From the NCBI GenBank assembly GCA_950295325.1, contig OX485808.1:42120527-42184526 (forward strand): a stretch of DNA of 64,000 nt. The letters are read 5' to 3'. The stretch comes from Polytrichum commune. Taxonomy: Eukaryota; Streptophyta; Polytrichopsida; Polytrichales; Polytrichaceae. The position numbers and the translations under genes are program-made. Shown here piece after piece: positions 28,851-63,226 of the stretch; the first letter of the stretch is position 1, and every line of letters begins with the position of its first letter. The notes under the pieces are model-generated. The model was not told the DNA's origin. It searched no databases and was given only the letters and a program-made list of their open reading frames with translations.

Positions 28851-31148
28851 TCAAGAACTAGGACTACCATGTCTATCACTATCCTCGTCCTCCTCCGCCT
28901 CTACGTCTAAATACTCCTCTACTAGTTTGTTGAAAGGTCGGATGCGACTGGGAGGTGGAGACGGAGCTTCCGCCAAAAGATTGGCAAGCCCGGCCGCATA
29001 GCAAGGGAGCTCAAATGTCTTGGAAGGACTCGAACTCATACATGCGTTCTCCCTTGGCGCTCTGAACCAAAAAGCAATAAGATTAGAAACAAGATGACAC
29101 ACGAAGATGGGAAAATCACTAGAAGGCAAACATGACAAAACATAGAAAGAAAACTTACGCACAAAGAAAACCGAATGCTCGTTTGGTCATCTTCTTAGGC
29201 GGATCAAACATAGAGGTGGACGGTGGGGCATTTGAGCGGGAGGGTTGCGAAGGTTGGTTTTCACGCATGGGGAGTAGGATTGCATTGAAAATCACTGGGT
29301 CACTCTCAAGGGCCACAATATGCCGCTCAATGGAGCGGCACGCTGTAATTGAACCACCTACACCACAATGCTAGTCCATAACAATATCATTCTTATCTGT
29401 GAGAGTAGCAAAAAGGATAGAGAAGAAAACTTGATGCTTCTCGCGAGCACCTCTCAAGGGTATCCCATCACTGCGCATCGTCTGGCTCTTCTCATCGGTG
29501 AAAACATTCAACCATCCATCTCACTGGAGGTAGTAACCATACTCCTTGGCGGCCTCCGGTCACACTTTCAGAACGGAGTTAACACGAACAAGAACCTTGA
29601 TACTGAATTTACGAGTCTGAAAAAATGAAAACGATTCCATAAGAATCGGAAGAAGTGAAATAAAAATAAATAAATAAAAAAGGACTAGGAGAGGGATAGT
29701 TGCATACCACTCCAGAGGGGTCCACCGGAGATTGGAGGTCCAAATCAGCCATACCGAACCAATCTTCGGCGACGTAGAAGTCGTAAGTGTGAGCCCAATC
29801 GAAAATAAGCCTAGAAACACTTGCACTCGCACAATGGACAATAACAAGGACGCCATGATCATAGAGGTTAGATTTTGCAAAAGCAAAAAGACAGTCATAG
29901 TAAGAGTTATGAAGCTTGTTCCAATCAAGAACATCCGTGAAGATGTTGGGCACCGGCAAATTTTCGGGAATGTCCGCGAAGAGTAAATCCAGTCCCTTGT
30001 GATGTGTAGAGGAGGTGTTCACACGGGAACGACCTTCCCCGGCCTGCAATGAAAAATCCATGAGAAAAAATGAAGAAGGAAAAAAAAAACGCAAACCAAA
30101 TGGAAAGGAGTTTGATGAATGCCAATAAAAAAATATACAAACCTTGGCAATGAACTCTTGGATGCGCGTATATGCCGGGAGGGGACCTCCTGCAAGGTCG
30201 CAATCGAGCATGAGTTGTACCATGTCCACATTTTCGATGAGGGAAAGAGTGGTAGGTGAATCCGAAGAGGTGGCACTCGTATCCAAGAGGGCGGCCTTCC
30301 TCTTGCGAGGCAAGGAGAGAAGAGAAGTGCCACTGTGAGAAGGAGTAGCAACAGTTGGTGGCCGACATGCGGAGGGAGTGATAGAGGGGGCAGCTGATGG
30401 AGCAACGGAGGGAGTGCTAGGTGGACTCTGTATTAAGGTGGGTGGCTGAACGGGGGTCTTTGAGGTGGACCGAGTTAATTGAGTGCCGGTATTCTTACCT
30501 CTGCCCTTTGCCTTGGGTGCCTTGGGCGGTGGAGGAGGAAGCTCAACGATGTCGGGCTCCTCATCCGGGACAATGTTCACCTCAGGAGCACTACGCACAA
30601 GGCTAGTAAGAAGAGGTTTTTCTTCCGCAAGCACAAATCCTCCAGAACAATCCAAGTACCATCCCCCAGCTTGCAAGTGAGACTGCGGAAACTTGGCAAC
30701 TTGATTGGGCATAAAAACACAAAGATCGGAGTTGACATCGACCCAATGTAAAAAGAAAGTTGGCAAGCACGAAGAAGGCAATGCATTCTTCACAACGAGC
30801 TCACGGTGAATGAACCTGAAAAATGAAGAACATGAGAAACAAAGACGGTGGGGAAAAGGAAATGAAACAAAAACAACATGTACTCAAAGAAAACTCAGAA
30901 TATTACCGGTAAGCGACGCGTTTGATTGATATGGGGCCGTCCCTAAAATCCATGAGATCAAGGCCTTTGACAAATTTTAGATCTCCCTTATCGTCAAAAT
31001 AAACCAAAAATGCCTTGTCCCAAAGAATCAGCCTCCAATGCTCAATATAATCTCCCGGTTGAAAAATATCTTCCGTCGAACTCCAATCGATTTCCACGGA
31101 ACACACATTCTCAAATGAAGCAATCTCAGCCTCAACCCCCTTCTCCAA
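28851..31148 (-). pseudogene. Gene B exons with beta-class DNA methyltransferase-like region
   Basis: Five exons. The first two carry 'YIEHWRLILWDKAFLVYF' and a Pro/Ser/Thr-rich linker with a basic patch (PRKRKAA). Exon 30043-29708 has 'GLDLLFADIPENLPV' where beta-class amino-methyltransferases have DLxxxDPPY, then 'LYDHGVLVIVHC' like the following strand. Exon 29616-29159 has 'REKHQVFFSILFATLTDKND', then 'IVMD*HCGVGGSITACRSIE' and 'IVALESD', matching motif I (DxFxGxGS...) and the acidic cofactor residue, in the permuted IV-to-I order of the beta class. In-frame stops fall after 'NSVLKV' and 'YGYYLQ' (both TGA) and at 29,371-29,373 (TAG) inside motif I. The tail is acidic. The motif IV change (DPPY to DIPE) suggests loss of catalysis even before the stops. 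Confidence 0.6.
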
Positions 31149-31253
31149 CTATGACAGAAAAGGAAAATAGTAAGAAAAGAACAACTCAATAACCTACAAA
31201 CATGAACTTAGACTCTAGACACACAAAAAAAAACCTTAGACATGACAAATAGA

Positions 31254-33395
31254 CCGAGAGGGTGTCCCACTCATACCGAGAGGGTGTCCCAGTCAAACAT
31301 TCTATATTTCCAAACAAGAAATAAACATATTAGCTGAATAACCTGATATCAGATTCTAGTGACGAGCCAAATAAATCCACATATGAGCACCACATATTAG
31401 CACCACATATTAGCATCACTTATGCACATTAGAAAACTGGACCGGGAAATCAGACCATATTTTCAAGTTCTCACCCAAAATGACCACAGTGACAAATTCT
31501 CAAAATCTGAAATTCCCTTATTAGCTAAATAAGCACAAATCAGATTCTAGTCTTGAGCCTCAAAACATACATTTCTCCACCCTCTCGGAACCGAGAGGGT
31601 GTCCCGGTCCTACTATAATGACCATTTTCTCAAATTTTGAAAATCAGAATTACCTATATGGGCTAAATAAGCACAAACAGATTGTAGTCATGAGCCATTA
31701 ATTTCCACATCTCTCCACCCTCTCGGAACCGAGAGGGTGTCCCAGTCTAACTACCTAACCATATTTTGAACTTTTCAAAATGAACACTACCTAAATGGGC
31801 CCATTATCTATATGACCATAACTTTTGAAAATCAGAATTACCTATATGAACTCAATATCCACGTATCAGATTCTAGTCTTGAGAACCCAAATTCCACATC
31901 TAGGCACCCACTAATACCAAAATGACCTTAGTATCAAAACTTGAAATTCCCTTATTGGCTCAAGAAGCACAAATCAGATTCTAGTATTGAGCCTCAAATA
32001 TATACATTTATCCACCCGGTCGGAACCGAGAGGGTGTCCCGTCCTACTAGACTGACCATATTTTAAAGTTTTGAAAACCAAAAATACCTATATTGGCTTC
32101 ATAACCACATATCAGATTCCAGTCATGAGAACCCCAAATCCAAATTTCGGAAAACACTAAAATAAAAAATAACCATATTTTCGAGTTCTGAAAATAAGAA
32201 TTACCTATATTGGCTCAATATGCACAAGTCAGATTCTACTCTCGAGCCTAAGATTTCCACATTTCTCAACCCTCTCGGAACCGAGAGGGTGTCCCTGTCC
32301 TACTATTTTCACCATATTTTGAACTTTTGAAAATCAGAATTACATATATTGGCTAAATAATCACCAACCAGATTCTAATCATGAGCCATTAATTTCCACA
32401 CCTCTCCACCCTCTCGGAACCGAGAGGGTGTCCCTGTCTAACTATCCTAACCACAATTTCAACTTTGGAAAATCAAAACTACCTATATGGGCCCATTTTC
32501 CACAAATCAGATTTTAGTCATGAGCACAAAATTTCCACATTTGTCCACCCTCTCGAAACCGAGAGGGTGTCCCTGTCCTACTATAATGACCATATTTTAA
32601 ACATTTAAAAATCAAAACTACCTATATGGGCCAATTATCCACAAATCAGATTCTAGTGAATGGCCTCAAATTTCCACATTTCTCCACCCTCTCGGAAACG
32701 AGAGGGTGTCCCAGTCTAACTATCCGAACCATATTTTCAACTTTTGAAAATCTAAACTACCTATATGGTCCCATTATCCACAAATCAGATTCTAGTCATG
32801 AGCCTAAAATTTCCACATTTGTCCACCCTCTCGGAACCGAGAGGGTGTCCCTGTCCTACAATTTTCACCATATTTTCATCTTTTAAAAACCAGAATTACC
32901 TATATTGGCTAAATAAGCACAAACCAGATTTTAGTCATGAGCCATTAATTTCCGAGAGGGTGTCCCAGTCTAACTAACCTAACCATATTTTGAACTTGTA
33001 AAAATTAGAACTACCTATATGGGCCCATTATCCAAAAATCAGATTCTAGACATGAGCCTAATATGTCCATATTTCTCCACCCTCTCGGAACCGAGAGGGT
33101 GTCCCAGAATAACTAACCTAACCATATTTTGAACTTTTGAAAATCAAAACTACCTATATGGGCCCATTATCCACAAGTCAGAATCTATTCTTGAGCTTGA
33201 TATTTCCACATTTCTCTACCCTCTCGGAACCGAGAGGGTGTCCTAGTCCTTCTACAATGACCATGTTTTCAACTTTTGAAAATCTAAAGTACCTATATTG
33301 GCTCAATATCCACATTTCAGATTATAGTCTTGAGCCTAAGATATCCACATTTCTCCACCCTCTCGGAACCGAGAGGGTGTCCTAGTCCTTGGTAT
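31254..33395. repeat. Palindrome array 1 (outer family), inside a gene B intron
   Basis: About 13 tandem units of roughly 139 bp fill most of the 2.3-kb intron 31,149-33,439. Each unit has the 24-bp palindrome CACCCTCTCGG-AA-reverse complement followed by 'tccc', then an AT-rich arm with 'cagattctag' and 'gaaaatca.aactacctatat'. Good copies start near 31,578, 31,718, 32,270, 32,409, 32,823, 33,080 and 33,357. Some have arm mutations (32,011, 32,547, 32,686) and some are half copies (31,254, 32,952). Confidence 0.9.
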
Positions 33396-33439
33396 GAAGA
33401 TTTCAAATAATAGAAAGAGGAAAAAAACAAGAGTTGCAC

Positions 33440-35113
33440 CTGCGCCCAGAAAGAAGCTTTGTTGAGCCAGTTTTCGAGGACTTTCTCCCTTAGAGGGAGA
33501 GACGACGGAAATCTATTATTTTCCTTGACATCGGCAGGAGAGTTCCACCAACGAAGCCACTTGGCCTTGAAATGGGCATCCACATGTGCGGTAGCCACCT
33601 TTTGAAGTTTTTCGATTGTCATATCAGGGACGAGGAAGGTGGAGAAATGACGGTCAATCTGCAACATAGATATGAAGTAAGAATAGAGATAAGTAAGAAA
33701 GAGATATCAAGCACGACATGATGTAAATGAGAATGAAAGAATAAATGAAAACACAAGGATAAGAGAGACACCTCGTTGAAGAAATCATCCCCGTTGTCCT
33801 TGTGGGCAACGGAAATGAACTTCTCAAAGTTTCGAGAACGAATGCTTTTGATCAACCTATCCTGGGCTTTTGACATAATATCCCAAATTTCTGTCGAAGA
33901 TCGGAGAGCCTCGGGAGTGGCCTCACGGTATAACCTCGCAGCCGTATCAGCCGCGTTGGATATCTCTCTCTGAAACAAACACAAAGAAGGATAAGGAACG
34001 CACATAAACATGGGAGAAGGAAAGTCAAGGAAAATTTAAACAAACTTTACCTTGTATAAGAATTTGACGAAGACATCTAATGTCAGGGGATACCAAGTAG
34101 GAGTCTTCTCCATCTTGGACTCACACATCTTGTAGTCCGAAACGGAAAGGAGGTCTTTGAACTCCTCTAGCCTCATCTTTCCAAACGTGCGAATGCGAAG
34201 TAACTTGGCGGAGAGGTTATCCTTAACATGGTCATGCTCCGTGGACCTATAACAAACAAAATGTTAGAGGGAAAAATGAGAACAAACAAAAGAGAATATC
34301 AGCAACATTAAATGTTGAACTCACCAGTTGATGTCATTCATAGCATTAAGGAAGAGGGCGGTGCAATTTCTTGGATCCACCAAAATACAATCAGCCCATA
34401 TATGCCAATCTTTGTCCAAAGGGTGATGCTTGTTGATGTGCCTCCACCAAGCTGTCAACCAATGGTTCCCCTCCCACACGTAGAACATTTTGCCAACAAA
34501 GTTAGCAAGGTCGGGGTCTCTTTCGAGAATGGCATCAAACTCTGCATTGGCCTCTTGCCATAATGGACTCCAGGAGGACTTGACGTCATCGGAGACATGA
34601 AGGACCTCATCGAGGTTGTTATATAGAGAGACGTACAAAGCGCGGTCACCATCACGGTATCCCATGACGAACTCATTCTCCAAACGAGAAACATCAACGT
34701 CGTTGATTGGCCGAACAAGAGGAAGACTCCGCAAGCGACACAATGGAATAGAGAAACGAGACTTCCCAAGAGGCTTGAATCGCACCCGCTGAATCACGGT
34801 GTTAGAGTCTTGCTTCTGCGATCTCCGAACCTTGAGCTTGGCTTCATCTGGATTCTCCTCATCAAGAGGTCGAATGCAGTCGGAAACAAGTGGAACATCA
34901 ATCTACAAGAGAAGAGGAGGGAAGCATCAGAAAAAAACTATAAGACGAAACAAACAAGAAGCAGAGGCAAACAAAAATACAACAGAATTTCAACGAATCA
35001 AACACCTCTCCCTGTGAGATGTCATCCAGTGCCCTATGGCAATCTTCACGAGGCGACAATAGAATATGCCCATCCGCCATGTATTGGACACGCGCCACAG
35101 TAAGGGCCAAAGC
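33440..35113 (-). pseudogene. Gene B exons with ParB-like region
   Basis: Five exons (35113-35006, 34902-34325, 34246-34051, 33969-33772, 33658-33440) encode about 433 residues. After an N-terminal segment (ALALTVARVQYMADGH) comes 'SIPLCRLRSLPLVRPIND', matching the usual start of ParB-like domains. About 90 residues later comes 'FYVWEGNHWLTAWW', which resembles the (D/E)GNHR..A signature of ParB/sulfiredoxin-fold proteins, with the Arg replaced by Trp. The remainder is helical and unassigned (Trp-rich near KAKWLRWWNSPAD). No stop interrupts this part. It is an assignment by motif only; a profile search against ParB/Srx families would decide it. Confidence 0.5.
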
Positions 35114-35289
35114 CTGCGATGCATGTATGCACAAAATACATCGAGATGATGCCCCAGTCCTTTTAGAAATGCACCCTTTAACCTTATACAACGCACTCCA
35201 TACACATACAAATAATCCATACACTCCAAACTTAGCCTATTGAATCCGAAAATCTGAAATAAGAATAGAGTGAAGAGCCCATATAAACA

Positions 35290-36839
35290 CCATTTCTCCA
35301 CCATCTCGGAACCGATAGGGTGTCCTGTCCTACTAAAGTAACCTTAAACCACATATATGATTCTTGTGATGAGCCTAGAAATCCACAATTCTCCAGCCTC
35401 TCGGAACCGAGAGGGTGACCTAGTCTAACAAACCAGACCATATTTTCAACTTTCGGAAATCAAAAATACCTTTAAAGGCTATATAACCACATATAAGATT
35501 CTAGTGTTGGGCCTCAAATTTCCACATTTCTCCCCCTCTAGGAACCGAGAGGGTGACCATGTCCTACTATAATGACAATAGTCTGAACTAATGAAAATCA
35601 AAACTACCTATATTGGCGCATTATCCACATTTCAGATTCTAGCCATGAGCCTAAAAAGTCCACATTTCTCCACCCTCTCGGAACCGAGAGGGTGTCTCCT
35701 TCCTACTATAATGACCATATTTTGACCATATAAAAATCAATACATCCTATATTGGCCCATTATCCAAAAATCAGATTCTATTCATGAGCCTAAAATTTCC
35801 ACATTTCACCACCCTCTCGGAACCGAGAGGGTGTCCCAGTCTAACTACCCTTACCATATATTCAACTTTTGAAAATCAAAACTACCTATATGGGCCCATT
35901 ATCCACAAATCAGATTCTAGCCATGAGCCTAAAAAGTCCACATTTCTCCACCCTCTCGGAACCGAGAGGTGTCCCCTTCCTACTATAATGACCATATATT
36001 GACCATATGAAAATAAATACATCCTATATTGGCCCAATATCCACAAATCACATTCTAGTCATGAGCCTAAAAATTCCACATTTCACCACCCTCTCGGAAC
36101 GGAGAGGGTGTCCCAGTCTAACTAACCTTACCATATATTGACCATATGAAAATCAAAACTACCTATATGGGCCCTTAATCCACATTTCAGATTCTAGTCA
36201 TGAGCCTCCAAAATCCACATTTCTCCACCCTCTTGGTACCGAGAGGGTGTCCCTGTCCTATTATAATGACCATGTTTTAAACATTTAAAATTCAAAACTA
36301 CCTATATGGGCCCATTATCCACAAATCAGATTCTAGTGAAGGGCCTCAAATTTCCACATTTCTCCACCCTCTTGGAACCGAGAGGTGTCCCCTTCCTACT
36401 ATAATGACCATATATTGACAATATGAAAATAAATACATCCTATATTGGCCCAATATCCACAAATCAGATTCTAGTCATGAGCCTAAAATTTCCACATTTC
36501 TCCACCCTCTCGGAACCGAGAGGGTGTCCCAGTCTAACTATCCTAACCATATTTTCAACTTTTGAAAATCAAAACTACCTATATAGGCCCGTTATCCACA
36601 AATCAGATTCTAGTGAAGGGCCTCAAATTTCCACATTTCTCCACCCTCTCGGAACCGAGAGGGTGTCTCTGTCCTCCTATACTGACCATATTTTGACATT
36701 ATGAAAATCAAAACTACCTATATGGGCCCGTTATCCACATTTCAGATTCTAGTCATGAGCCTCCAAAGTCCACATTTCTCCACCCTCTCGGAACCGAGAG
36801 GGTGTCCCAGTCTAACTATCCTAACCATATTTTCAACTT
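35290..36839. repeat. Palindrome array 2 (outer family), left of the inserted element
   Basis: About 11 units of the same 139-bp repeat. It is cut off abruptly at 36,839 in the middle of a unit ('attttcaactt'), where the TIR of the 17.2-kb element begins. The interrupted unit resumes at 54,034. Confidence 0.9.
36836..36839. repeat. Left target-site duplication ACTT
   Basis: The four bases before the left TIR equal the four bases after the right TIR (54,034-54,037). Removing one copy and the element restores the consensus 'ttttcaacttttgaaa' of the 139-bp repeat exactly. Confidence 0.75.
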
Positions 36840-36862
36840 AACACTATATTCGTTAAATTGAG
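36840..36862. repeat. Left terminal inverted repeat of the 17.2-kb element
   Basis: Begins AACACTATATTCG and continues TTAAATTGAG. It is the inverted counterpart of 54,011-54,033. Confidence 0.8.
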
Positions 36863-37019
36863 GCTTTTTGGGCATTTTGAGACATTCATAGAAATAAGAA
36901 CAAGGATAAATGGAACACATATTGGTGAAAGTTGTAAGATGCGAACACTTTGAAGCGGGTGTTTAGACCAAGAACCCCATTAATAACTCATATTTGTGAT
37001 GGTATAGGGTGGGCAATCG

Positions 37020-37390
37020 AAACCTTAGACCAAATTGAAGGGGACATCTTAAAACATTCATATTAATGCACACAAAATATGAGAGCTTGTATGAATATGG
37101 TTTAGGTAGGGCAATCCAAACCATAGATCTTATTGAAGGGAAAATCTTGAAACATTCATATTAATGCACACAAAATATGAGAGCTTGTATGAATATGGTT
37201 TAGGTAGGGCAATCCAAACCATAGATCTTATTGAAGGGAAAATCTTGAAACATTCATATTAATGCACACAAAATATGAGAGCTTGTAATGTATGGTTTAG
37301 GTAGGGCACTCCAAACCATAGATCTTATTGAAGGGGAAATCTTAAAACATTCATATTAATGCACACAATAAGGCACTCCAAACCTTAGAC
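37020..37390. repeat. 98-bp tandem repeat near the left end of the element
   Basis: About 3.5 copies. 'GAGAGCTTGTA' starts at 37,081, 37,179 and 37,277, and each copy contains 'taatgcacaca' and 'ggtttaggtagggca'. Subterminal tandem repeats are common transposase-binding regions in TIR elements (inference). There is no equivalent at the right end. Confidence 0.8.
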
Positions 37391-37547
37391 CATATTGAAG
37401 GCAAAATCATGTGACACTTATATTATTAAAAAAAAAACATACAAAGTATGGCACGTAAAATTCATAGCATGCTAACACCACACATCCATTGGATAGTGCG
37501 ACCCAAAATCATATTGCTATGGTCCAAAACCCTACGCCTACTATGGC

Positions 37548-38352
37548 CTATCTAGCCTCGGAGACTGCCTCTATCTCTTTTGCCTTTTTTTCTTTTGCCT
37601 CTTTTGTTTTTGCTTCTTTTTCTTTTGCTGCGGCTTCTTTTGCTCGCATTGCTTCAACATTCCTGAAAATCTCCGCCCCGCGACTATAGCCATTTTTGGG
37701 TTGACCGCCCTCTATAACACATTTTGGATTCCGTCGGCCGCCCGAATTATACGACGAAGAATTCGAATACGATGAAGTGGACTGTCTTGCATTTCTGGTC
37801 ATGGAGTAGAAACGCTCCAACTCGACGGACACACTAGACCGCATAGGTTTACGGGTGGGAGCAACCTGCAACGCGTGAATGTAAGAACACATGTGTTAGT
37901 TTAGGGAGGAAGACCCAAACGTGTCACACGTTCATTTTTTAAGTGCTGGATGATTGTAATGCGCGGATAACCATGTTTAGGGGGGGGGGGGGGTTCACCT
38001 TGTCACCGGGGGCGTTCCCGTCGGAGTCGGCGAGGAGGGGCAATGCGTCCCGCAAAGGAATAGGAAGGGTTCCACTCTTCGTTGGCCGAGCGTCCATCCG
38101 CAGCCGCCGTTGAGGTGTACTATTGCCGCCGGGCGGAGAGGGGGATGTCCGGACGCATTTGCGATTTATGCCCTTGAGCGGCGACGGGGACGGAGAATGC
38201 CGGAAGATTTGCTTGGGTGGGGGGCTATCGACGACGCCGGCGTCAAGAGGCTCCTTGGAGTAGTCAATGGTCGACACGGCGTCGTAGACGGTCTCGTAGA
38301 AGAAGCTCCCCAAGTCTGACTCACTGACGATGTCAATCGAGGGCTCCAAACG
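37548..38352 (-). CDS. Exons D: probable 3' part of the FCP1-like gene
   Basis: Two exons, 38352-37999 and 37865-37548, joined in phase 0 through a GTGAAC donor and a TTGCAG acceptor. They end in a stop at 37,548-37,550 after a Lys/Glu/Ala-rich helix (AKEKEAKTKEAKEKKAKE). The first exon has a strong polypyrimidine tract and CAG acceptor but no start codon nearby. It needs an upstream exon, and the only candidate within 160 bp is the FCP1-like exon ending at 38,514. The text is acidic, then Ser/Pro-rich. No domain is recognised. It could also be an independent gene whose first exon is missed. The intron donor side contains a poly-G run (37,980-37,993). Confidence 0.45.
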
Positions 38353-38513
38353 CTGGCGCAAAAAAGGAAACGAAACAAAACCCAAGGGAGGAGGGTTTGA
38401 TAGAGCGCGTGAAAATCAAGATACATATGAAGCATATATTACACAAAATGAAAGGGCGCGCGCGCACCCACACACATACATACATACATACACATACAAA
38501 CACACGTAGTGTG

Positions 38514-40847: not shown

Positions 40848-41669
40848 CTAGCAAGTGCCACGAGCGCTAACCTGCACATCCCACGCACATGCATGGTTAG
40901 CTCCCAAAACCGCGGACCTTCAAGCTCATGGCTAGGTCACCAAACCCTCCTACACATGCATTCGGGACTCTCCCCTTCGTAGGAAGCCAATGGCTAAGGT
41001 GGACTTCCATCCATGGAAGTCCACTCTTGAGTTGATCATCGTGTTGCCAAAACAACACTACAACTACCCGGAGCACATTGCCAAGTATGCTCCGGGGGGG
41101 TCGGTCGGCTAAGCCGCCTCACCCATATAAGCCTCTAGGACTTTGGGCGGGGCCCCTACCCCACCATCAAGTATCCTTTTGTCTCTCTACAAGGGTTGGG
41201 GCCAAGTGGACATTTTCCCTTAGCCGCTGGGGCTAGAACCTCCCAGCAGCTTCGGACCACCATAACTTCTACATATGATGTCTGATGCTCTCAAGCGACC
41301 ACTCTATCGTCATCTACTCTTTGCGTAGATGCCGATGGACTCCTCACCTGCCCCATTCGGGCAAGTATTGAGGAAGTTATGGCTCCTCAAACCTTGGCAG
41401 TCCCGGGCACCACTCCCAGGTCACTGCTGTCCCAGGGTGCTGTCCCGGGACAGCGCCCCACTCAAATGGCCATATCTCCTAGCTAGCACCTCCGATTGAG
41501 GTGTTCCTTAGCATTCTAGAATTCCACGGCCATAAGCTACTCGTAACTTATGGCCTTACCCTCATGACTCTTAGTCCTCGTGGGTGAGAGGCGTTCTTAA
41601 CGCCCGGGGCCCTCACCCACACTAAGAGTACTTGGGCCCTCTCACCAATGGCGCCACAAGTCCCGGGTG
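40848..41669. other. Stretch between genes C and A, possibly an inserted LTR-like sequence
   Basis: G+C-rich, with no frame and no palindromes. Phrases such as 'ccataacttctacatatgatg' and several inverted GGGAC/GTCCC motifs (about 41,400-41,460) resemble LTR sequence, and a 'catataagcc' box lies near 41,130. No paired repeat or target duplication was established. It may simply be the 3' end of gene A plus the missing 5' part of gene C. Confidence 0.3.
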
Positions 41670-49402: not shown

Positions 49403-49409
49403 TATAAAG
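49403..49409 (+). promoter_or_regulatory. Putative TATA box of gene E
   Basis: TATAAAG followed about 30 bp later by a pyrimidine-rich stretch (TCCTTTTTTGCTCTTCTCC) fitting a transcription start. It lies 1 kb before the first coding ATG, with the palindrome cluster and an acceptor (TGTGTGTAG at 50,436) in between, suggesting a 5' UTR intron. Confidence 0.4.
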
Positions 49410-50290: not shown

Positions 50291-50441
50291 CAAAGCCAAT
50301 GGCATAGCATTCATATGAACATGTATGAACACTGTGTATTTGCAATATTGTATATATAAAAAATGGTTTTTGTATTATTCGATTGGAACCTACAATTTTG
50401 TGGTTTCTTGATAAGGTTCAATGTTCATGTGTGTAGGCAGA

Positions 50442-53400: not shown

Positions 53401-53502
53401 CGGAAAAATCATAGTGGATCAGTGTCCATCCCTCAAAAGTACATAACTTTTGCAAAAGACAACCTTGCTCGGATCGTAGAAGAAGCAACCCACGTTGAAT
53501 GA
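50442..53502 (+). pseudogene. Gene E: DUF7869-type transposase-like protein, frameshifted
   Basis: Three frames must be joined. 50442-51584 runs from the ATG after a 5' UTR acceptor. A one-base loss in the A-run at 51,581-51,584 shifts to the frame ending near 51,900. A probable intron follows (acceptor GTAG at 52,016), then 52019 to about 52,705, then a second frameshift to the frame ending 53,502. The N-terminal half has an acidic region, 'KDCCVHRCCQLFPRDKLLAI', 'HGNVGLKKPREATRQ' and a 'CSNCEK' zinc-ribbon-like knuckle. The C-terminal half has 'RVQLDNCAKDNKSRYVFAYW' and 'SFLLVGHTHDDIDASFGRWS', hallmarks of DUF7869 proteins, which occur in many copies in plant and animal genomes and are thought to be mobile-element derived. 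As the only transposase candidate between the TIRs it may have mobilised the element (inference). Confidence 0.6.
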
Positions 53503-54010
53503 GAAGTTGGTAGGATTGTGTTAGCATGATTATAGTGTAAACAGTAATTCGACGAATATATATTACTCATATGTGTGCTCCTCAAACTTGGGGCAAAGTT
53601 TGGGTAGAACTTGCGAATGCTATATTGTTTGGGGTTGGATGAATATCCATTTACTATATTTCAATACAATTGTAAAGCTCATTTTTTTATTAAATTTGGG
53701 ACTAAATTTTCCATTGAAGAAATATGCATTTATTGCATGCACTTTGTATGTTGCAATGTCTATATTTTATTGACCATGCTAATAATAGAAATCATTTTAT
53801 ATGTTTCTTGGGTGAAACTAGTTTGGAGTGCTCTACCCAAAGTGTTTTTGTTGATGAAGTTGGTGTTGAGTGCTCTACCATATGTGATTATGTCCACACA
53901 TAATAGATTTGGGATATTAGAACATATAATATATTTGAGATTGTTCGCAATATAGTTTCGGAACACGGAATGTTGTTTGATCCATATATTAATTTGAGAC
54001 TAGAGAAAGT
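53503..54010. other. Right subterminal region of the element
   Basis: AT-rich, with no gene, palindrome or tandem repeat. It probably contains the 3' end of gene E. Confidence 0.4.
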
Positions 54011-54033
54011 CTCAATTTAACGAATAAAGTGTT
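54011..54033. repeat. Right terminal inverted repeat of the 17.2-kb element
   Basis: CTCAATTTAACGAATA followed by AAGTGTT, the reverse complement of 36,840-36,862 with one mismatch. The ACTT duplication follows at 54,034-54,037. Confidence 0.8.
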
Positions 54034-57000
54034 ACTTTTGAAATTCAAATCTACCTATATGGGTCCATTATCCACAAATCAGATTCTAGAGAAGGGCCTC
54101 AAAAGTCCACAATTCTCCACCCTCTCGGAACCGAGAGGGTGTCTCTGTCCTACTATACTGACCATGTTTTAAACATTTAAAATTCAAATCTACCTATATG
54201 GGCCCATTATCCACAAATCAGATTCTAGTGAAGGGCCTCAAATTTCCACATTTCTCCACCCTCTCGGAACCGAGAGGGTGTCTCTGTCCTCCTATACTGA
54301 CCATATTTTGACATTATGAAAATCAAAACTACCTATATGGGCCCGTTATCCACATTTCAGATTCTAGTCATGAGCCTCCAAGGTCCACATTTCTCCACCC
54401 TCTCGGAACCGAGAGCGTGTCCCAGTCTAACTATCCTAACCATATTTTCAACTTTTGAAAATCAAAACTACCTATATGGGCCCATTATACACAAATCAGA
54501 TTCAAGTCATGAGCCTATAATTTCCACATTTCTCCACCCTCTCCGAACCGAGAGGGTGTCTCTGTCCTACTATAATGACCATATTTTGACCATATGAAAA
54601 TCAAAATACCTATATGGGCCCTCAATCCACATTTCAGATTCTAGTCATGAGCCTCCAAAATCCACAAATCTCCACTCTCTCGGAACCGAGAGGGTGTCCC
54701 TGTCCTACTATAATGACCATGATTTAAACATTTAAAATTCAAAACTACCTATATGGGCCCATTATCTACAAATCAAATTCTAGTGAAGGGCCTCAAATTT
54801 CCACATTTTTCCACCCTCTCGGAACCGAGAGGGTGTCTCTGTCCTACTATACTGACCATATTTTGACATTATGAAAATCAAAACTACCTATATGGGCCCT
54901 TAATCCACATTTCAGATTCTAGTCATGAGCCTCCAAAGTCCACATTTCTCCACCCTCTCGGAACCGAGAGGGTGTCCCAGTCTAACTATCCTAACCATAT
55001 TTTCAACTTTTGAAAATCAAAACTACCTATATGGGCCCATTATACACAAATCAGATTCAAGTCATGAGCCTATAATCTCCACATTTCTCCACCCTTTCGG
55101 AACCGAAAGGGTGTCTCTGTCCTACTATACTGACCATATTTTGACATTATGAAAATCAAAACTACCTAGATGGGCCCATTATCCACATTTCATATTCTAG
55201 TCATGAGCCTCCAAAGTCCACATTTCTCCACCCTCTCGGAACCGAGAGGGTGTCTTTGTCCTACTATACTGACCATATTTTGACATTATGAAAATCAAAA
55301 CTACCTATATAGGCCCATTATCCACATTTCATATTCTAGTCATGAGCCTCCAAAGTCCACATTTCTCCACCCTCTCGGAACCGAGAGGGTGTCCCAGTCT
55401 CACTAGCCTAACCATATTTTCAACTTTTGAAAATCAAAACTACCTATATGGTCCCATTATCCACAAATCAGATTCTAGTCATAACCCTCAAATTTCCACA
55501 TTTCTCCACCCTCTCGGAACCGAGAGGGTGTCTCTGTCCAACTATAATGACCATATTTTGACATTATGAAAATCAAAACTACCTATATAGGCCCGTTATC
55601 CACAAATCAGATTCTAGTGAAGGGCCTCAAATTTCCACATTTTTCCACCCTCTCGGAACCGAGAGGGTGTCTCTGTCCTACTATACTGACCATATTTTGA
55701 CATTATGAAAATCATAACTACCTATATGGGCCCTTAATCCACATTTCAGATTCTAGTCATGAGCCTCCAAAGTCCACATTTCTCCACCCTCTCGGAACCG
55801 AGAGGGTGTCTCTGTCCTCCTATACTGACCATATTTTGACATTATGAAAATCAAAACTACCTATATGGGCCCGTTATCCACATTTCAGATTCTAGTCATG
55901 AGCCTCCAAGGTCCACATTTCTCCACCCTCTCGGAACCGAGAGCGTGTCCCAGTCTAACTATCCTAACCATATTTTCAACTTTTGAAAATCAAAACTACC
56001 TATATGGGTCCATTATACACAAATCAGATTCAAGTCATGAGCCTATAATTTCCACATTTCTCCACCCTCTCCGAACCGAGAGGGTGTCTCTGTCCTACTA
56101 TAATGACCATATTTTGACCATATGAAAATCAAAATACCTATATGGGCCCTCAATCCACATTTCAAATTCTAGTCATTAGCCTCCAAAATCCACAAATCTC
56201 CACTCTCTCGGAACCGAGAGGGTGTCCCTGTCCTACTATAATGACCATGTCTTCAACATTCAAAAATTCAAATCTACCTATATGGGCCCATTATCTACAA
56301 ATCAAATTCTAGTGAAGGGCCTCAAATTTCCACATTTCTCCACCGTCTCGGAACCGAGAGGGTGTCTCTATCCTACTATACTGACCATATTTTGACATTA
56401 TGAAAATCAAAACTACCTATATGGGCCCTTAATCCACATTTCAGATTCTAGTCATGAGCCTCCAAAGTCCACATTCTCCACCCTCTCGGAACCGAGATGG
56501 TGTCCCAGTCTAACTATCCTAACCATATTTTCAACTTTTGAAAATCAAAACTACCTATATGGGCCCATTATACACAAATCAGATTCAAGTCATGAGCCTA
56601 TAATCTCCACATTTCTCCACCCTTTCGGAACCGAGAGGGTATCTCTGTCCTACTATACTGACCATATTTTGACATTATGAAAATCAAAACTACCTATATG
56701 GGCCCATTATCCACATTTCATATTCTAGTCATGAGCCTCCAAAGTCCACATTTCTCCACCCTCTCGGAACCGAGAGGGTGTCTCTGTCCTACTATAATGA
56801 CCATATTTTGACATTATGAAAATCAAAACTACCTATATAGGCCCATTATCCACATTTCATATTCTAGTCATGAGCCTCCAAAGTCCACATTTCTCGACCC
56901 TCTCGGAACCGAGATGGTGTCCCAGTCTAACTAGCCTAACCATATTTTCAACTTTTGAAAATCAAAACTACCTATATGGTCCCATTATCCACAAATCAGA

Positions 57001-60000
57001 TTCAAGTCATAACCCTCAAATTTCCACATTTCTCCACCCTCTCGGAACTGAGAGGGTGTCTCTGTCCTACTATAATGACCATATTTTGACATTATGAAAA
57101 TCAAAACTACCTATATAGGCCCGTTATCCACAAATCAGATTCTAGTGAAGGGCCTCAAATTTTCACATTTCTCCACCCTCTCGGAACCGAGAGGGTGTCT
57201 CTGCCCTACTATACTGACCATGTTTTAAACATTTAAAATTCAAATCTACCTATATGGGCCCATTATCCACAAATCAGATTCTAGTGAAGGCCCTCAAATT
57301 TCCACATTTTTCCACCCTCTCCGAACCGAGAGGGTGTCTCTGTCCTACTATACTGACCATATTTTGACATTATGAAAATCAAAACTACTTATATGGGCCC
57401 TTAATCCACATTTCAGATTCTAGTCATGAGCCTCCAAAGTCCACATTTCTCCACCCTCTCGGAACCGAGAGGTGTCCCCTTCCTACTATAATGACCATAT
57501 ATTGACAATATGAAAATAAATACATCCTATATTGGCCCAATATCCACAAATCAGATTCTAGTCATGAGCCTAAAATTTCCACATTTCTCCACCCTCTCGG
57601 AACCGAGAGGGTGTCCCAGTCTAACTATCCTAACCATATTTTCAGCTTTTGAAAATCAAAACTACCTTTATGGGCCCTTTATACACAAATCAGATTCAAG
57701 TCATGAGCCTATAATTTCCAGATTTCTCCACCCTCTCGAAACCGAGAGGGTTCTCTGTCCTACTATACTGATCATATTTTGACATTATGAAAATCAAAAC
57801 TACCTATATGGGCCCTTAATCCACATTTCAAATTCTAGTCATGAGCCTCCAAAGTCCACATTTCTCCACTCTCTCGGAACCGAGAGGGTGTCCCTGTCCT
57901 ACTATAATGACCATGTTTAAAACATTTAAAATTCAAATCTACCTATAAGGGCCCATTATCCACAAATCAGATTCTAGTGAACGGCCTCAAATTTCCACAT
58001 TTCTCCACCCTCTCGGAACCGAGAGGGTGTCCCAGTCTAACTATCCTAACCATATTTTCAACTTTTGAAAATCAAAACTACATATATGGGCCCATTATAC
58101 ACAAATCAGATTCAAGTCATGAGCCTCAAATTTCCACATTTCTCCACCCTCTCGGAACCGAGAGGGTGTCTCTGTCCTACTATACTAACCATATTTTGAC
58201 TTTATGAAAATCAAAACTACCTATATGGGCCCTTAATCCACATTTCAGATTCTAGTCATGAGCCTCCAAAGTCCACATTTCTCCACCCTCTTAGAACCGA
58301 GAGGGTGTCCCAGTCTAACTATCCTAACCATATTTTCAACTTTTGAAAATCAAAACTACCTATATGGGCCCTTTATACACAAATCAGATTCAAGTCATGA
58401 GCCTATAATTTCCACATTTCTCCACGCTCTCGGAACCGAGAGGGTGTCCCTGTCCTACTATAATGACCATATTTTGACCATATGAAAATCAAAATACCTA
58501 TATGGGCCCTCAATCCACATTTCAGATTCTAGTCATGAGCCTCCAAAATCCACAAATCTCCACTCTCTCGGAACCGAGAGGGTGTCCCTGTCCTACTATA
58601 ATGACCATGATTTAAACATTTAAAATTCAAAACTACCTATATGGGCCCATTATCCACAAATCAGATTCTAGTGCAGGGCCTCAAATTTCCACATTTCTCC
58701 ACCCTCTCGGAACCGAGAGGTGTCCCCTTCCTACTATAATGACCATATATTGACAATATGAAATAAATACATCCTATATTGGCCCAATATCCACAAATCA
58801 TATTCTAGTCATGAGCCTAAAATTTCCACATTTCTCCACCGTCTCGGAACCGAGAGGGTGTCCCAGTCTAACTATCCTAACCATATTTTCAACTTTTGAA
58901 AATCAAAACTACCTATATGGGCCCGTTATCCACAAATCAGATTCTAGTCATAAGCCTCAAATTTCCACATTTCTCCACCCTCTCGGAACCGAGAGGGTGT
59001 CTCTGTCCTACTATACTGACCATATTTTGACATTATGAAAATCAAAACTACCTATATGGGCCCTTAATCCACATTTCAGATTCTAGTCATGAGCCTCCAA
59101 AGTCCACATTTCTCCACCCTCTCGGAACGGAGAGGGTGTCCCAGTCTAACTATCCTAACCATATTTTCAACTTTTGAAAATCAAAACTACCTATATGGGC
59201 CCTTTATACACAAATCAGATTCAAGTCATGAGCCTATAATTTCCACATTTCTCCACGCTCTCGGAACCGAGAGGGTGTCCCTGTCCTACTATAATGACCA
59301 TATTTTGACCATATGAAAATCAAAATACCTATATGGGCCCTCAATCCACATTTCAGATTCTAGTCATGAGCCTCCAAAATCCACAAATCTCCACTCTCTC
59401 GGAACCGAGAGGGTGTCCCTGTCCTACTATATTGACCATGTTTTAAACATTTAAAATTCAAATCTACCTATATGGGCCCATTATCCACAAATCAGATTCT
59501 AGTGAAGGGCCTCAAATTTCCACATTTCTCCACCCTCTCGGAACCGAGAGGGTGTCTCTGTCCTACTATACAGACCATATTTTGACATTATGAAAATCAT
59601 AACTACCTATATGGGCCCTTAATCCACATTTCAGATTCTAGTCATGAGCCTCCAAAGTCCACATTTCTCCACCCTCTCGGAACCGAGAGGGTCTCCCAGT
59701 CTAACTATCCTAACCATATTTTCAACTTTTGAAAATCAAAACTACCTATATGGTCCCATTATCCACAAATCAGATTCTAGTCATAAGCCTGAAATTTCCA
59801 CATTTCTCCACCCTCTCGGAACCGAGAGGGTGTCTCTGTCCTACTATAATGACCATATTTTGACATTATGAAAATCAAAACTACCTATATGGGCCCGTTA
59901 TCCACAAATCACATTCTAGTGAAGGGCCTCACATTTCCACATTTCTCCACCCTCTCGGAACCGAGAGGGTGTCCCAGTGTAACTATCCTAACCATATTTT

Positions 60001-60180
60001 CAACTTATGAAAATCAAAACTACCTATATGGTCCCATTATCCACAAATCAGATTCTAGTCATAAGCCTAAAAAATCCACATTTCTCCACCCTCTCGGAAC
60101 CGAGAGGGTGTCCCTGTCCTACCATATTGACCATATTATCAACTTTTCAAATTCAAAACTACCTATATGGACTCCATATC
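54034..60180. repeat. Palindrome array 3 (outer family), about 44 units
   Basis: About 44 head-to-tail units of roughly 139 bp, each with the CACCCTCTCGG-AA palindrome. Larger blocks were copied inside the array. The variant 'ccgagagcgtgtccc' at 54,411 recurs at 55,939 (1,528 bp, 11 units), and 'tccacgctctcgg' at 58,421 recurs at 59,252 (831 bp, 6 units). The short open frames along it are products of the repeat and are not genes. It lies in the longest intron of gene B. Confidence 0.95.
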
Positions 60181-60240
60181 CACATTTCAGATTCCAGTGT
60201 TGAGAAATCAACATTCAGAATATCACAAGTAGACATGCAC

Positions 60241-60321
60241 CTGAGAATCCCGAACTTCCAACCTTTCACGAATGCGCTCCTCCTTGCTTCGGCCGGCATA
60301 TAGTGGAGGCGCCTCCGAAGA
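60241..60321 (-). pseudogene. Gene B second exon (between array 3 and intron 1)
   Basis: 81 bp between ATTAG and a CAG|GTGCATG donor encode 27 residues (SSEAPPLYAG, then RSKEERIRERLEVRDSQ), a charged helix. Phase 0 on both sides fits the exons at 62,882 and 35,113. Evidence is limited to splice signals, phase and coding-like composition. Confidence 0.4.
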
Positions 60322-61721
60322 CTAATCTAGGTTAGACTCAAGGGTTCCTTGGTGTGGTGGATGGTTCCTAGGAACTAGAGGAATCGGGATACTTTGGCCT
60401 ATGTACCTCACCCCAAAATGGTATTGGCCGAAAGCCTATGTCCTATGTGCCGTGTTTGGGAGGTGGCGGCCCCGCACAACTTCGTGCTTAGCTTATTGTG
60501 AGCCCAAAAGGGTGCCCACATTTAGTCTTAGACCCTTGAAACGTTAGTTGATGCACTTTGAAGTAGCATGTTACTTCACAAAAATATAAAAAGAGTGAAA
60601 TGTTAGTCTTAGAAGTACCATGTTGTAAGAGGCTAGGATGTGAGTTGTTATTATGTTTTTACCTTCGGAAGAATTTGAGTGAATGAGGATAGGTAAGGAG
60701 AACTTGGATTGAGTAGTTAGTGAGTAGGCTAGTACAAATGGATGGAGACAACCAAAGTGACTCAAGAGGCAAGTGCATTCGAATTGGGATGAATGGAGGA
60801 TCACATGGAGCGCACAAGTGGACCACCTCATCATGGCCACTTAATGGGGAAGGCCCAAGGAAGAATGCAAGGTGGAGGATAAGCAAATTCTCAAAGCACC
60901 AATCAAATCACGAGTTAAGCATCGTGGTTTGAATTAAGTGGTGAGCGACGATTTGGGAAAGTAAGGGGAGAAAGTTATGGCGGCGGAAAGCGAAGGAGGC
61001 TAAGTTTGGGTTGAAGCATCCCAAGTTTGGTAAAGTGTGGTAGGTAGAAAGCCAAGGCTAGTTAAATGTTCGAATTAGGATCCTTGTTGATCATTTGAGG
61101 GAGGCAGGCTTAGAAGATAGGATTGGCGCCTACTAAGTAGGAGGAAATCTCAAGGGCTTATCGTGAGCCTTGAGGGTGCTCACCCCCTCAAGCTTACTAT
61201 ATAATCCCTCATTCTTCCCTCACTCATCCTCTCTTTCCTTTGTGCTCCAAGGCACCCCACGAGTTATAAGTGTGGGTGTGGGAAGCCATATTGGAGCACA
61301 TGTGTGTGCTTAGTTTTTAGTTTGAGAGCCAAGGCTTGTTAGCCTTGAAGAGGGCTTGACCTCTTGGTAGAATTAGTGTTGACGTGAAGGATTTTAAAGT
61401 TAATTCATGATTCCAATTTGTGGTACTTAAAGTTCATGTTTTTGAATACACGTGGTTGCAAGTTCCATGTTTAAGAGTTGAGCACTTGATGTTGTGATGA
61501 GTGCAAAAATATACTTGTGTGGATTAGTTAGTCTTAGTGAAGTTAGGAAATTCTCTCTCCCCCTCTCCTCTCTAGGATTTTAGGATTTTAGGATTAGAGA
61601 AGAATTGTGTGATTAGAAAGGGGTTGTTAGTAGAATTAGGGAAATTAGGTAGGAAGATTAGTTAAGGGCTTGAATAATTAGTGAGGTAGTTGGGGATTAC
61701 AACTACAAAGTTGTGGGTTCA

Positions 61722-61968
61722 TGAAGGAGCTGGGTTTATGAAGGAGCTGGGTTTGTTTAGTTAGAAAGTAAAGAGCTGGGTTTATGAAGGACCTGGGTTT
61801 GTTTAGTTAGAAGCTAAGGAGCTGGGTTCATGAAGGAGCTGGGTTTATGAAGGAGCTGGGTTTGTTTAGTTAGAAGCTAAGAAGCTGGGTTTATGAAGGA
61901 GCTGGGTGTATGAAGGAGCTAGGTTTATGTAATTAGAAAGTAAAGAGATGGGTTCATGAAGGAGCTTA
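61722..61968. repeat. Complex minisatellite (GGAGCTGGGTTTATGAA)
   Basis: 'aaggagctgggttta(/c)atg' alternates with 'tttgtttagttagaa(g/a)' in units of 18 and about 57 bp, repeated irregularly about ten times. Confidence 0.85.
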
Positions 61969-62693
61969 GTAGATAGCCTACCTAATTAGCTCATAGACAA
62001 GTAGTTAGTTACATTATGCTAGTTAGTGTTATGTGTGGCTTTCACAAGTAAATGTATTTGAGATTGACTATAGAGAATAGTGTTTTTTTAACACTTGCAT
62101 CCTCTCTTTAAAAATAAACCACGTGCACAAATTAATGGAGAATGTGGAGCACTCTCGCGATGGCAAGACAAAGGAAGCAAAGACCAAAGGTGCGAGGGAG
62201 AGATTGACATAAGTCACATAAGTATTTCTTAATACTTAAAGGCTTATGTACGGTATGGAGACACCAAGTGAGACCTCTTATAGTAGCGATACGGAATACA
62301 CAAGTGATAGTTCAAGTGGTAGTATAGAGTCAACGGCACGGACTCCATTTAGGAGAGGGATATCCTTAAGGGCTTGTGTAGCTAAAGCAGCCGGATGGAC
62401 GTTAGAAGCAAACAAAGACAAAATAGCACCCGAGCATAAGGAGGTTAAAATAACATAGTTAACTTGTGCATTCTCCACATACGTATTGAAATCGTACATT
62501 GAGTTGTTAAAAGTGAAATTCCAGTTAAATCCAAGACCACTTGAAGGGTGAACCTTGCACTATGGACTCATCCAAGTCCAAATCCAATACCGCGGAGGAA
62601 TGTGAGCCCAAACCCACTACTCGGACTACGGACGCTTAAGGGTGGGGGGTTTGGCCTCACACTTATAGCCTATTCGTGGTGCATAATTTTTGA

Positions 62694-62717
62694 CCCTCTC
62701 GGTTCCGAGAGGGTTTG
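62694..62717. repeat. Single outer-family palindrome, inverted orientation
   Basis: ACCCTCTCGG-TT-CCGAGAGGGT lies alone, 2.5 kb from the array and without the rest of the 139-bp unit. This shows that the palindrome itself, not only the satellite, can occur alone. Confidence 0.85.
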
Positions 62718-62881
62718 GTTCTATATTCCCCTCTAACCAACTTAAACAAAATAAGAACTTCCAATATTTCACATGTTGGTCGTTAAGAATCACATTAGAT
62801 AACTCAATATCAAATTCCATCTTTTAAATATCCTAAATGTATATATGAGCCTAGTGCGTAATACGCTAAACCCAAACTTAC

Positions 62882-63226
62882 TGTGCCAATTGAGTCCTCT
62901 TTTATCTCCTCCTCAGATTCGCTTGAATCCGAATCGCTTCGATGCTCGCTCTCTCCCATCGATGGTTCGCGCGATCCACTCTGCTCCCGTTCTTCCTCTA
63001 TCCGTTCCAATTCCTCGTTCTTGCTAGACGTCCTTGTCTCTGCCTCTCCCCCCGTCTTGCTCAAATCTGTTGGTGGTTCACTTCCCTGTGTACAAGATTG
63101 CTCCTTCTTCCTAAGTTCTCTCCGTCGCCTCTGCTTTGAATTGCTAAAACTCGTCCCTCCCTTTCTTTTCTTCCTCTTCCTTCCAGGATCGGCTGTGGAG
63201 ACTTGACTATTTCCTGGTTCCTTCAT
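62882..63226 (-). pseudogene. Gene B first coding exon (basic/acidic linker region)
   Basis: 115 codons from an ATG at 63,226 to a canonical donor (GGCACA|GTAAGT). A Lys/Arg-rich segment, likely a nuclear localisation signal (GRKRKKRKGG, then QRRRRELRKK), is followed by a Ser/Glu/Asp-rich acidic stretch (SDSDSSESEEEIKED). No domain is recognised. The exon ends in phase 0 and joins 60,321 in frame. In the other direction it is divergent from gene F, with 324 bp between the two start codons. Confidence 0.5.

What the first reader, a model, noticed from the sequence alone, without database searches (positions are those of the whole stretch)
28851..63226. Two nested loci, each pairing a ParB-like/methyltransferase-like gene with its own multiplied palindrome
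Seen: gene A (inner) and gene B (outer) both have a ParB-like motif (DGQHS; WEGNHW) followed by a permuted motif IV-to-I methyltransferase-like region. Gene A is surrounded by GTTTGGGTCG-NN-reverse-complement sites, gene B by CACCCTCTCGG-AA-reverse-complement sites. The two palindromes share no sequence but have the same design: 10-12-bp arms and a two-base core. Each stays on its own side of the TIR boundary. Known: ParB proteins bind palindromic parS-like sites, and bacteria and phages carry ParB-methylase fusions. Inference: each protein recognises its own palindrome, for silencing escape, partition, self-recognition or copy spreading, and sites and protein co-diverge between elements.
Basis: partly seen in the sequence, partly recalled or inferred. 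Interest (0 to 1): 0.92.

Follow-up and report, generated by a model that had tools for sequence, protein, structure and literature searches.

The report
Transposons carrying private protein-palindrome pairs
Two nested plant transposons each carry a methyltransferase-like gene surrounded by many copies of its own 22-letter palindrome, and across related transposons in the same genome the palindrome changes in step with the protein, which suggests that each protein reads its own element's tag.

Summary
In the window palindrome A (19 sites) lies only in the inner 17.2-kb transposon. Palindrome B lies only in the outer one, mostly inside a 139-bp satellite. Genome-wide there are 9,231 A, 1,998 B1, 1,917 B2 and 85 B3 places, with 0 for each reversed control.

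In 38 gene-B loci that I chose for diversity, four protein clades carry four different 22-bp palindromes. A fifth is tentative. On the protein tree the classes need the minimum number of changes, and protein and site distances correlate (r=0.84, 0 of 20,000 permutations). Both genes are under purifying selection.

Gene B's methyltransferase domain is confirmed by profiles, but its DPPY motif reads D-[IV]-P-[ED] in 4 of 4 clades. ParB homology was tested and not found. Gene A's methyltransferase relation rests on motifs only.

Best reading: element-encoded, site-specific DNA-binding proteins that mark and probably de-silence their own transposon, as VANC does for Arabidopsis VANDALs. No binding or methylation data exist.

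The parts
28254..64000 (.). Outer transposon (gene B element). Left end at about 28252-28256. It continues beyond the window's right end, where the next 8.5 kb (L090) hold a + strand transposase-like frame. Interrupted by the inner element (36840-54033) and by a solo LTR (60497-62661).
   Evidence: Left: 22 other matches begin within these 5 bases, others begin later. Right: 62664-63990 is repeated, and at least 19 of the 39 other scored places lie within 8 kb of a gene-B place. Solo LTR. L090.
36840..54033 (.). Inner transposon (gene A element), 17.2 kb, inserted in a 139-bp unit of the outer array
   Evidence: Imperfect 28-bp terminal inverted repeats and an ACTT duplication on both sides
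36840..36867 (+). Left terminal inverted repeat of the inner element
54006..54033 (-). Right terminal inverted repeat of the inner element
43895..45203 (-). Gene A exon 1: N-terminal part and DGQHS domain (DGQHS at 44168-44182), ending before a GTGAGT donor. The frame is broken near 44.7 kb in this copy; L004, L008 and L015 have one frame of 494-651 codons.
   Evidence: at least 150 copies genome-wide
42416..43756 (-). Gene A exon 2: methyltransferase-like part (MIDFRNIPG, then FNVFGGSKP)
42165..42248 (-). Gene A exon 3 start (NIYSYVEDTDVQF)
   Evidence: motif reading only; exon limits inferred
43816..43886 (+). Palindrome A sites in gene A intron 1 (2). In other copies a 57-bp or 46-bp tandem array.
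42334..42391 (+). Palindrome A sites in the presumed gene A intron 2 (2)
45230..45680 (+). Palindrome A sites upstream of gene A (5)
49673..50227 (+). Palindrome A sites upstream of the DUF7869 gene (7)
39797..40191 (+). Palindrome A sites (3) between the phosphatase gene and gene A, inside open frames of unknown coding status
50415..53502 (+). Inner element DUF7869 gene, candidate transposase (role inferred)
   Evidence: PF25273 E 3.1e-43
38514..39365 (-). NIF-like (CTD) phosphatase gene of the inner element
   Evidence: PF03031 E 7.4e-15
34324..34902 (-). Gene B N-terminal conserved exon (WEGNHW in this copy; family mostly WEGNHR)
29287..30043 (-). Gene B methyltransferase exons: motif IV DIPEN (29948-30043), then motif I (29287-29397, with a stop in this copy)
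31578..33379 (+). Palindrome B array in the presumed gene B introns (139-bp units)
35299..36804 (+). Palindrome B array upstream of the gene B conserved exon, left of the inner element
54118..60110 (+). Palindrome B array right of the inner element (44 units of 139 bp)
62692..62715 (+). Single palindrome B beyond the solo LTR

Best explanation
Genes A and B encode transposon-borne, sequence-specific DNA-binding proteins. Each binds, probably as a dimer, the 22-bp palindrome multiplied in the mostly non-coding parts (introns, upstream regions) of its own element. Binding at dense arrays marks the element as self and most likely keeps its chromatin open (anti-silencing), as VANC proteins do for VANDAL elements. 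Shown: two elements, each with a private site; clade-by-clade co-divergence of protein and site; purifying selection on the proteins; a methyltransferase domain in gene B. Inferred: that the protein binds the site, that it is a dimer, that the altered methyltransferase fold helps to read DNA rather than to methylate it, and that the outcome is anti-silencing.
For: Co-divergence: 34 of 38 gene-B loci (3.1-4.5 kb each) hold a site of one of four classes, and 0 of 34 hold two of these four (some loci have a single site). The tree needs the minimum of 3 changes (shuffled mean 16.9, 0 of 200). Mantel r=0.84 over 12 representatives under 90% identity (0 of 20,000). A fifth clade proved to have a palindrome of its own. 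Privacy: 41 of the 50 listed B3 places (85 in all) lie within 9 kb of one of only 10 B3 genes in 408 Mb. Site, not spacer: information falls from about 1.9 bits in the arms to about 0.2 in the flanks of the A sites (the arms were selected by pattern). Array periods differ (46, 57, 32, 64, 79 bp for A; 139, 85, 105-108, 127, 64 bp for B) while the 22-mer stays. A copies with dS 1.5-2.0 share the identical site. All 34 of 34 fetched gene-A loci carry A sites. Of 19 window sites 0 lie in the exons as I set them, 16 in introns or upstream regions, 3 in open frames of unknown status. dN/dS 0.04-0.05 between A subclades, 0.06-0.20 in the 6 of 8 B pairs with a value. In the outer array CpG O/E is 0.06 outside the sites, while about 92 of 100 CpGs lie in them. 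VANC precedent: PMC5735166 passages.
Against: No binding, methylation or expression data. The site co-segregates with the whole element, so it co-diverges with the transposase too and the binder is not proven to be gene A or B. ParB homology was not detected, and the one structure model failed (pLDDT 37.6). L043 and L056 show no site within 1.5 kb, though they nest among B1 loci. Site clusters without a listed gene exist (C4:55128443; C1:24591147). Four of 12 B2 loci hold a second, unexplained 10-2-10 palindrome. The CpG depletion is clear in B1 arrays only: B2 and B4 spacers (O/E 0.22-0.74) are around the host level (0.50-0.55), and B5 sites have no CpG. B5 rests on two loci and has longer arms in L091. 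The four class patterns were taken from the same loci on which they were tested, and the loci were chosen by me.
Confidence: 0.55

Rival explanations
1. The palindromes are binding sites of each element's transposase (internal repeats used in transposition), and the methyltransferase-like gene is a bystander that co-diverges by linkage.
For: Both elements carry a second large gene: DUF7869 in the inner one and a long frame with a C-x-C-x18-C-x-H end in the outer one. Linkage makes all genes of an element co-diverge with the sites.
Against: Inner sites lie 3.0 kb and 3.8 kb from the ends, not subterminally. They cluster in introns and upstream of gene A and upstream of DUF7869. Outer sites lie around and between gene-B exons.
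Confidence: 0.2
2. The proteins are active DNA methyltransferases that methylate their own palindrome as a self mark (N6-adenine or N4-cytosine), with ParB-like loading.
For: Gene B matches N6_N4_Mtase in 4 of 4 clade members (best 2.5e-9) and DpnA/CcrM. Bacterial ParB-methylase fusions have the same order of domains. Two of 10 phage/bacterial fusions also depart from DPPY at the second residue (DIPF in L085, DFPY in L087).
Against: Motif IV lacks the aromatic fourth residue that all 10 phage/bacterial fusions keep (D-[IV]-P-[ED]-N in 4 of 4 gene-B clades). In gene A motifs IV and I are both degenerate.
Confidence: 0.15
3. The palindromes are passive parts of satellites amplified by slippage, with no binding protein.
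For: B1 sites lie in a 139-bp satellite, and tandem amplification explains their number.
Against: The same 22-mer sits in arrays with unrelated spacers and periods and as single copies; it survives dS of about 2, keeps palindromic symmetry through class changes and tracks the protein tree.
Confidence: 0.05
4. The proteins are autoregulatory transcription activators or repressors of the element's genes, without a wider effect on chromatin.
For: Sites lie upstream of and inside element genes.
Against: 19 sites (inner) and about 60 (outer) per element and thousands genome-wide seem more than simple promoters need; in the VANC case motif density goes with chromatin effects.
Confidence: 0.2

Closest known systems
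VANDAL transposons and VANC anti-silencing proteins of Arabidopsis (PMC5735166 passages; PMC10398659 abstract and outline)
   Same: An element-encoded protein with a short motif multiplied as tandem repeats in introns and upstream non-coding regions of its own element; protein and motif co-diverge between subfamilies; dense arrays are private to the family.
   Different: Here the site is a 22-bp palindrome with a mostly free 2-bp core (VANC21: a 9-base motif arrayed in one orientation). The gene B protein has a methyltransferase-type domain. Demethylation has not been shown here.
Bacterial and phage ParB-methylase fusions (L076, L077, L079, L080, L082-L087, L089; passage on Bacillus cereus ParB-methylase in PMC5512222)
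   Same: Gene B has a C-terminal permuted beta-class methyltransferase with the same order of motifs (hhalign probability 95%), after an N-terminal domain with an EGNHR box.
   Different: The N-terminal domain is not detectably ParB (probability 2%). The aromatic residue of DPPY is replaced. Eukaryotic gene with introns in a transposon.
ParB/parS
   Same: Palindromic sites in clusters beside the gene of the presumed binder.
   Different: No ParB_N match; 22-bp sites with a variable core; thousands of places for A, B1 and B2; integrated element.

Membership tests
VANC/VANDAL anti-silencing | Motif multiplied in non-coding regions of the element that encodes the protein | tested here: met
   (3 of 19 window A sites lie in open frames of unknown status)
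VANC/VANDAL anti-silencing | Protein and motif co-diverge between related elements | tested here: met
VANC/VANDAL anti-silencing | Homology to VANC proteins / VANDAL MULE transposase | not tested
   No VANC sequence was compared. Pfam gives no family for gene A or for the two long L090 frames, and one chance hit (E 0.059, 1 of 8 members) for the gene B N-terminal exon.
VANC/VANDAL anti-silencing | Causes loss of DNA methylation at targets | not testable with these tools
   No methylation data held
ParB (PF02195) | ParB_N domain | tested here: not met
   (hhalign score 23.1; one of 60 shuffles scored higher, 29.5)
ParB (PF02195) | Palindromic sites beside the gene | tested here: met
   that the protein binds them is not shown
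Beta-class N6/N4 DNA methyltransferase (gene B) | Motif IV then motif I order, SAM-binding domain | tested here: met
   PF01555 in 4 of 4 members, the window row at E 0.023; DpnA 2.3e-6; hhalign 95%, at most 7.4% in 60 shuffles
Beta-class N6/N4 DNA methyltransferase (gene B) | Catalytic [DNS]PP[YFW] | tested here: not met
   D[IV]P[ED]N in 4 of 4
Beta-class N6/N4 DNA methyltransferase (gene A) | Profile match to the family | tested here: inconclusive
   hhalign 1.6-3.0%, aligned at motif I; Pfam none

The most novel reading that the evidence does not exclude
A family of plant transposons has turned a bacterial-type DNA methyltransferase, with its catalytic motif changed, into a programmable-looking reader of 22-bp palindromes, each clade with its own address. 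It is an independent analogue of VANC anti-silencing, and a natural set of protein-site pairs (A, B1-B4, perhaps B5) already exists in one genome.
Probability: 0.45. Interest if true: 0.9.

Novelty: new variant of a known kind. Interest (0 to 1): 0.82.

Why it matters
Sequence-specific anti-silencing by transposons is, in the papers seen here, described for Arabidopsis VANDALs. A different type of protein doing the same would show convergence, and would offer five or six ready protein-site pairs from which a recognition code could be read. It also makes the question directly testable whether a methyltransferase fold can lose catalysis and become an address reader.

Tried and rejected
ParB identity: Pfam at E up to 10, PHROGs, NCBIfam, a genome scan with PF02195 (53; 4 hits, all on small contigs C10, C12, C23) and hhalign against 10 phage/bacterial fusions (74; rows L077, L081 and L088 were left out) did not support it. 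AlphaFold of the window's gene-B exon alone gave pLDDT 37.6; no fold search was run on so poor a model. Relatives in viral contigs (25 and 38 stretches, none confirmed) and of gene A in phages were not found. PDB search with the N-terminal profile: one chance hit at E 4.4.

Rejected: partition of an episome (the inner element is integrated, with target duplication); exact satellite by-product (see rivals); subterminal transposase repeats as first choice. The idea that CpGs explain all sites was dropped because B5 has none and B2/B4 spacers are not clearly depleted. A search for the outer element's inverted repeats against L090 gave only 12-14-bp matches, so its right end is not set. No paper on DUF7869 was found, and four searches combining ParB, methyltransferase or anti-silencing with transposon, phage or bryophyte words listed no description of this system (listings only, except the passages named); the library holds only part of the literature.
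Full report
What is there. The window is G000:C6:42120527-42184526 of a 408-Mb genome in 64 contigs. Two transposons are nested. The inner one, 36840-54033, has 28-bp imperfect inverted repeats and an ACTT duplication, and splits a unit of a 139-bp satellite. It carries a NIF-type phosphatase, gene A, and a DUF7869 gene. The outer one begins at about 28254, where 22 other matches also begin within 5 bases while some begin later. It holds gene B on the minus strand and runs past the window: 62664-63990 is repeated, and at least 19 of 39 other scored places lie within 8 kb of a gene-B place. The next 8.5 kb, L090, contain a long plus-strand frame ending in C-x-C-x18-C-x-H, without Pfam match; I read it as transposase-like, from memory of SWIM fingers. 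A 2,165-bp solo LTR sits at 60497-62661.

Sites. A sites: 19 in the window (0.01 expected). Their arms carry about 1.9 bits per position, the core 0.3-0.8 and the flanks about 0.2 (arms are partly conserved by construction, because sites were found by pattern). B sites are units of the 139-bp array; across 67 sites the arms agree at 0.963 against 0.80-0.85 for the spacer (same caveat). Perfect 10-2-10 palindromes: 49 in the window, none in the first 28,250 bases, 0.1 expected in block shuffles. Genome-wide: A 9,231, B1 1,998, B2 1,917, B3 85 places, reversed controls 0 each. In gene A intron 1 one site begins 8 bases after the start of the donor GTGAGT. Of the 19 window A sites, 16 are in introns or upstream regions as I set them, and 3 (39797-40191) lie in open frames whose coding status I could not settle.

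Gene families. Gene A's conserved exon has 945 candidate places, of which 150 were scored, all 88-100% identical. Of 34 loci fetched (the 30 best-scoring and 4 low-scoring), 34 carry A sites. Their intron arrays have 57-bp units in the main group and about 46-bp units in the divergent group; between the groups dS is 1.5-2.0, yet the site is the same. Gene B has 1,275-1,290 candidates, and 150 were scored in each of three searches. I fetched 38 loci, the 6 best and 32 chosen for diversity.

Co-divergence. Classes: B1 ACCCTCTCGG-NN-CCGAGAGGGT, with subclade variants such as ACCCTCTCGA-TT (L037) and CCGAGAGCCT on one side (L041, L044); B2 GAGGCCTCGG-AT-CCGAGGCCTC, with an asymmetric variant in L046, L053, L054; B3 AATCCCACGG-AT-CCGTGGGATT; B4 GGGGTGCCGT-AA-ACG(G/A)CACCC, an imperfect palindrome in most copies. 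With these, 34 of 38 loci have sites and none has two of these classes. On an IQ-TREE tree of the conserved exon each class is one side of a branch; together they need 3 changes, the minimum, against a shuffled mean of 16.9 (0 of 200 as low). Near-copies help such shuffles, so I repeated the test with 12 representatives under 90% identity: protein and site distance correlate at r=0.84, 0 of 20,000 permutations. The loci without these classes were L043, L056, L063, L064. The last two form a separate clade. L064's first stretch already held one unclassed palindrome, CAAAATTCTGCA-AG-TGCAGAATTTTG. When 3.2-3.6 kb further upstream were fetched for both, L091 showed three perfect palindromes GAATTCTGCA-NN-TGCAGAATTC with cores AG, CT, AT, and L092 a 9-of-10 relative. 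Adding them as B5 gives 4 changes of a minimum 4 and r=0.87 for 13 representatives. B5 arms are longer than 10 bp in L091 and L064, and B5 rests on two loci, so it is tentative. L043 and L056 remain negative within 1.5 kb. Privacy: of the 85 B3 places, 50 are listed; 41 of 50 lie within 9 kb of 6 of the 10 B3 genes, and 9 form one cluster with no listed gene. A B1 cluster at C1:24591147-24595687 also has no gene among the scored 150. These may be gene-less derivatives.

Against simple exclusivity: 4 of 12 B2 loci (L047, L048, L049, L066) contain another palindrome, CTCACGGGTG-NN-CACCCGTGAG, also 10-2-10, of unknown partner.

The proteins. Between A subclades dN/dS is 0.04 (exon 1) and 0.05 (exon 2); the median over all pairs with dS above 0.02 is 0.09 and 0.22. 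For gene B, 6 of 8 pairs gave values of 0.06-0.20 and 2 gave none because dS was saturated. So the proteins are under constraint. Gene B's C-terminal region, aligned over four clades (A1), matches DpnA (2.3e-6) and CcrM (5e-4) in the PDB, N6_N4_Mtase in 4 of 4 members (best 2.5e-9; the window row alone only 0.023, below the curated cut-off), and a profile of 10 phage/bacterial ParB-methylase fusions at hhalign probability 95.4, score 63, where the best of 60 column shuffles scored 28. Motif IV is D-[IV]-P-[ED]-N in all four; all 10 fusions keep an aromatic fourth residue, though two have DIPF and DFPY. Motif I keeps its two glycines. Whether gene B still methylates is open; I think it more likely altered or lost. 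The N-terminal domain of gene B and gene A have no significant profile match (for gene B's N-terminal profile the real score, 23.1, is exceeded by one of 60 shuffles). hhalign aligned DGQHS to EGNHR, and gene A's TLTKRGDFIFNVFGGS to motif I, but at probabilities under 4%. I therefore file neither as ParB, and call gene A methyltransferase-like by motif only. DndB is described as formerly classified in the ParB superfamily (PMC10853773 passages); that DGQHR proteins belong nearby is recalled.

CpG. In the outer array 54037-60198 about 92 of 100 CpGs lie in the sites; outside them O/E is 0.06 (8 CpG in 5,194 bp). Spacers in the 12 of 13 B1 loci with a value (the window among them) give O/E 0.09-0.27, B2 0.22-0.59, B4 0.45-0.74, against 0.50-0.55 in the host part. 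So only B1 arrays are clearly depleted. In 344 A sites the CpG positions are changed no more often than the others. This fits sites kept free of methylation or under selection. Since array units share ancestry, it is suggestive only, and B5 sites contain no CpG.

Mechanism. The anatomy matches the published VANC/VANDAL case: motif arrays in introns and upstream regions of the element's genes, co-diverging with the protein (PMC5735166 passages; PMC10398659 abstract and outline). I infer a site-specific binder that prevents silencing of its own element (my odds: about 0.85 for a functional protein-site pair, about 0.5 for anti-silencing as the role). The transposase as binder is the main rival, because linkage cannot separate the genes of one element.

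Window copies. Both genes are damaged here: gene A by a frame break between 44.6 and 44.8 kb, gene B by a stop in motif I. Copies with open frames exist elsewhere.

Novelty. Searches in the held library listed no description. It works like a known kind of system with what looks like a different type of protein (no VANC sequence was compared), hence a new variant.

Noticed in passing
G000 contigs C10, C12, C23 (L077, L076, L078): Small contigs with bacterial ParB-type genes, two of them ParB-methylase fusions (711 and 443 codons): the plant assembly holds bacterial sequence.
   Followed up: partly
window 60497-62661: A 2,165-bp repeat present as pairs about 9.4 kb apart elsewhere: a solo LTR inside the outer element.
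   Followed up: partly
L047, L048, L049, L066: A second 10-2-10 palindrome CTCACGGGTG-NN-CACCCGTGAG (and CCCACGGGTG-NN-CACCCGTGGG in L066) in B2 loci, partner unknown.
   Followed up: no
G000:C4:55128443-55129358 and C1:24591147-24595687: Arrays of B3 and B1 sites with no gene B among the scored copies: possible gene-less elements using the same tag.
   Followed up: no
L001-L030, upstream of gene A: Two further conserved palindromes, TGCATATACAATGC-(4)-GCATTGTATATGCA in 17 of 30 and AATCTGATTC-(3)-GAATCAGATT in 10 of 30 fetched stretches.
   Followed up: no
window 36999-37368: 98-bp tandem repeat next to the inner element's left end.
   Followed up: no
window 38001-46000: G+C of 47-60% in part of the inner element against 32-43% in the host part, and CpG O/E about 0.9-1.1 in two stretches.
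   Followed up: no
window 17125-23420: Kinase, NB-ARC and an LRR region built of repeated 144-bp units, its shifted copies about 76-87% alike.
   Followed up: no
L020, L025, L038, L041, L051: One or more of the palindromes GGGCGCTGTCCCGGGACAGCGCCC, TGGACTTCCAT-NN-ATGGAAGTCCA and GCCATGAGCTA-(4)-TAGCTCATGGC in each, seemingly another mobile element.
   Followed up: no
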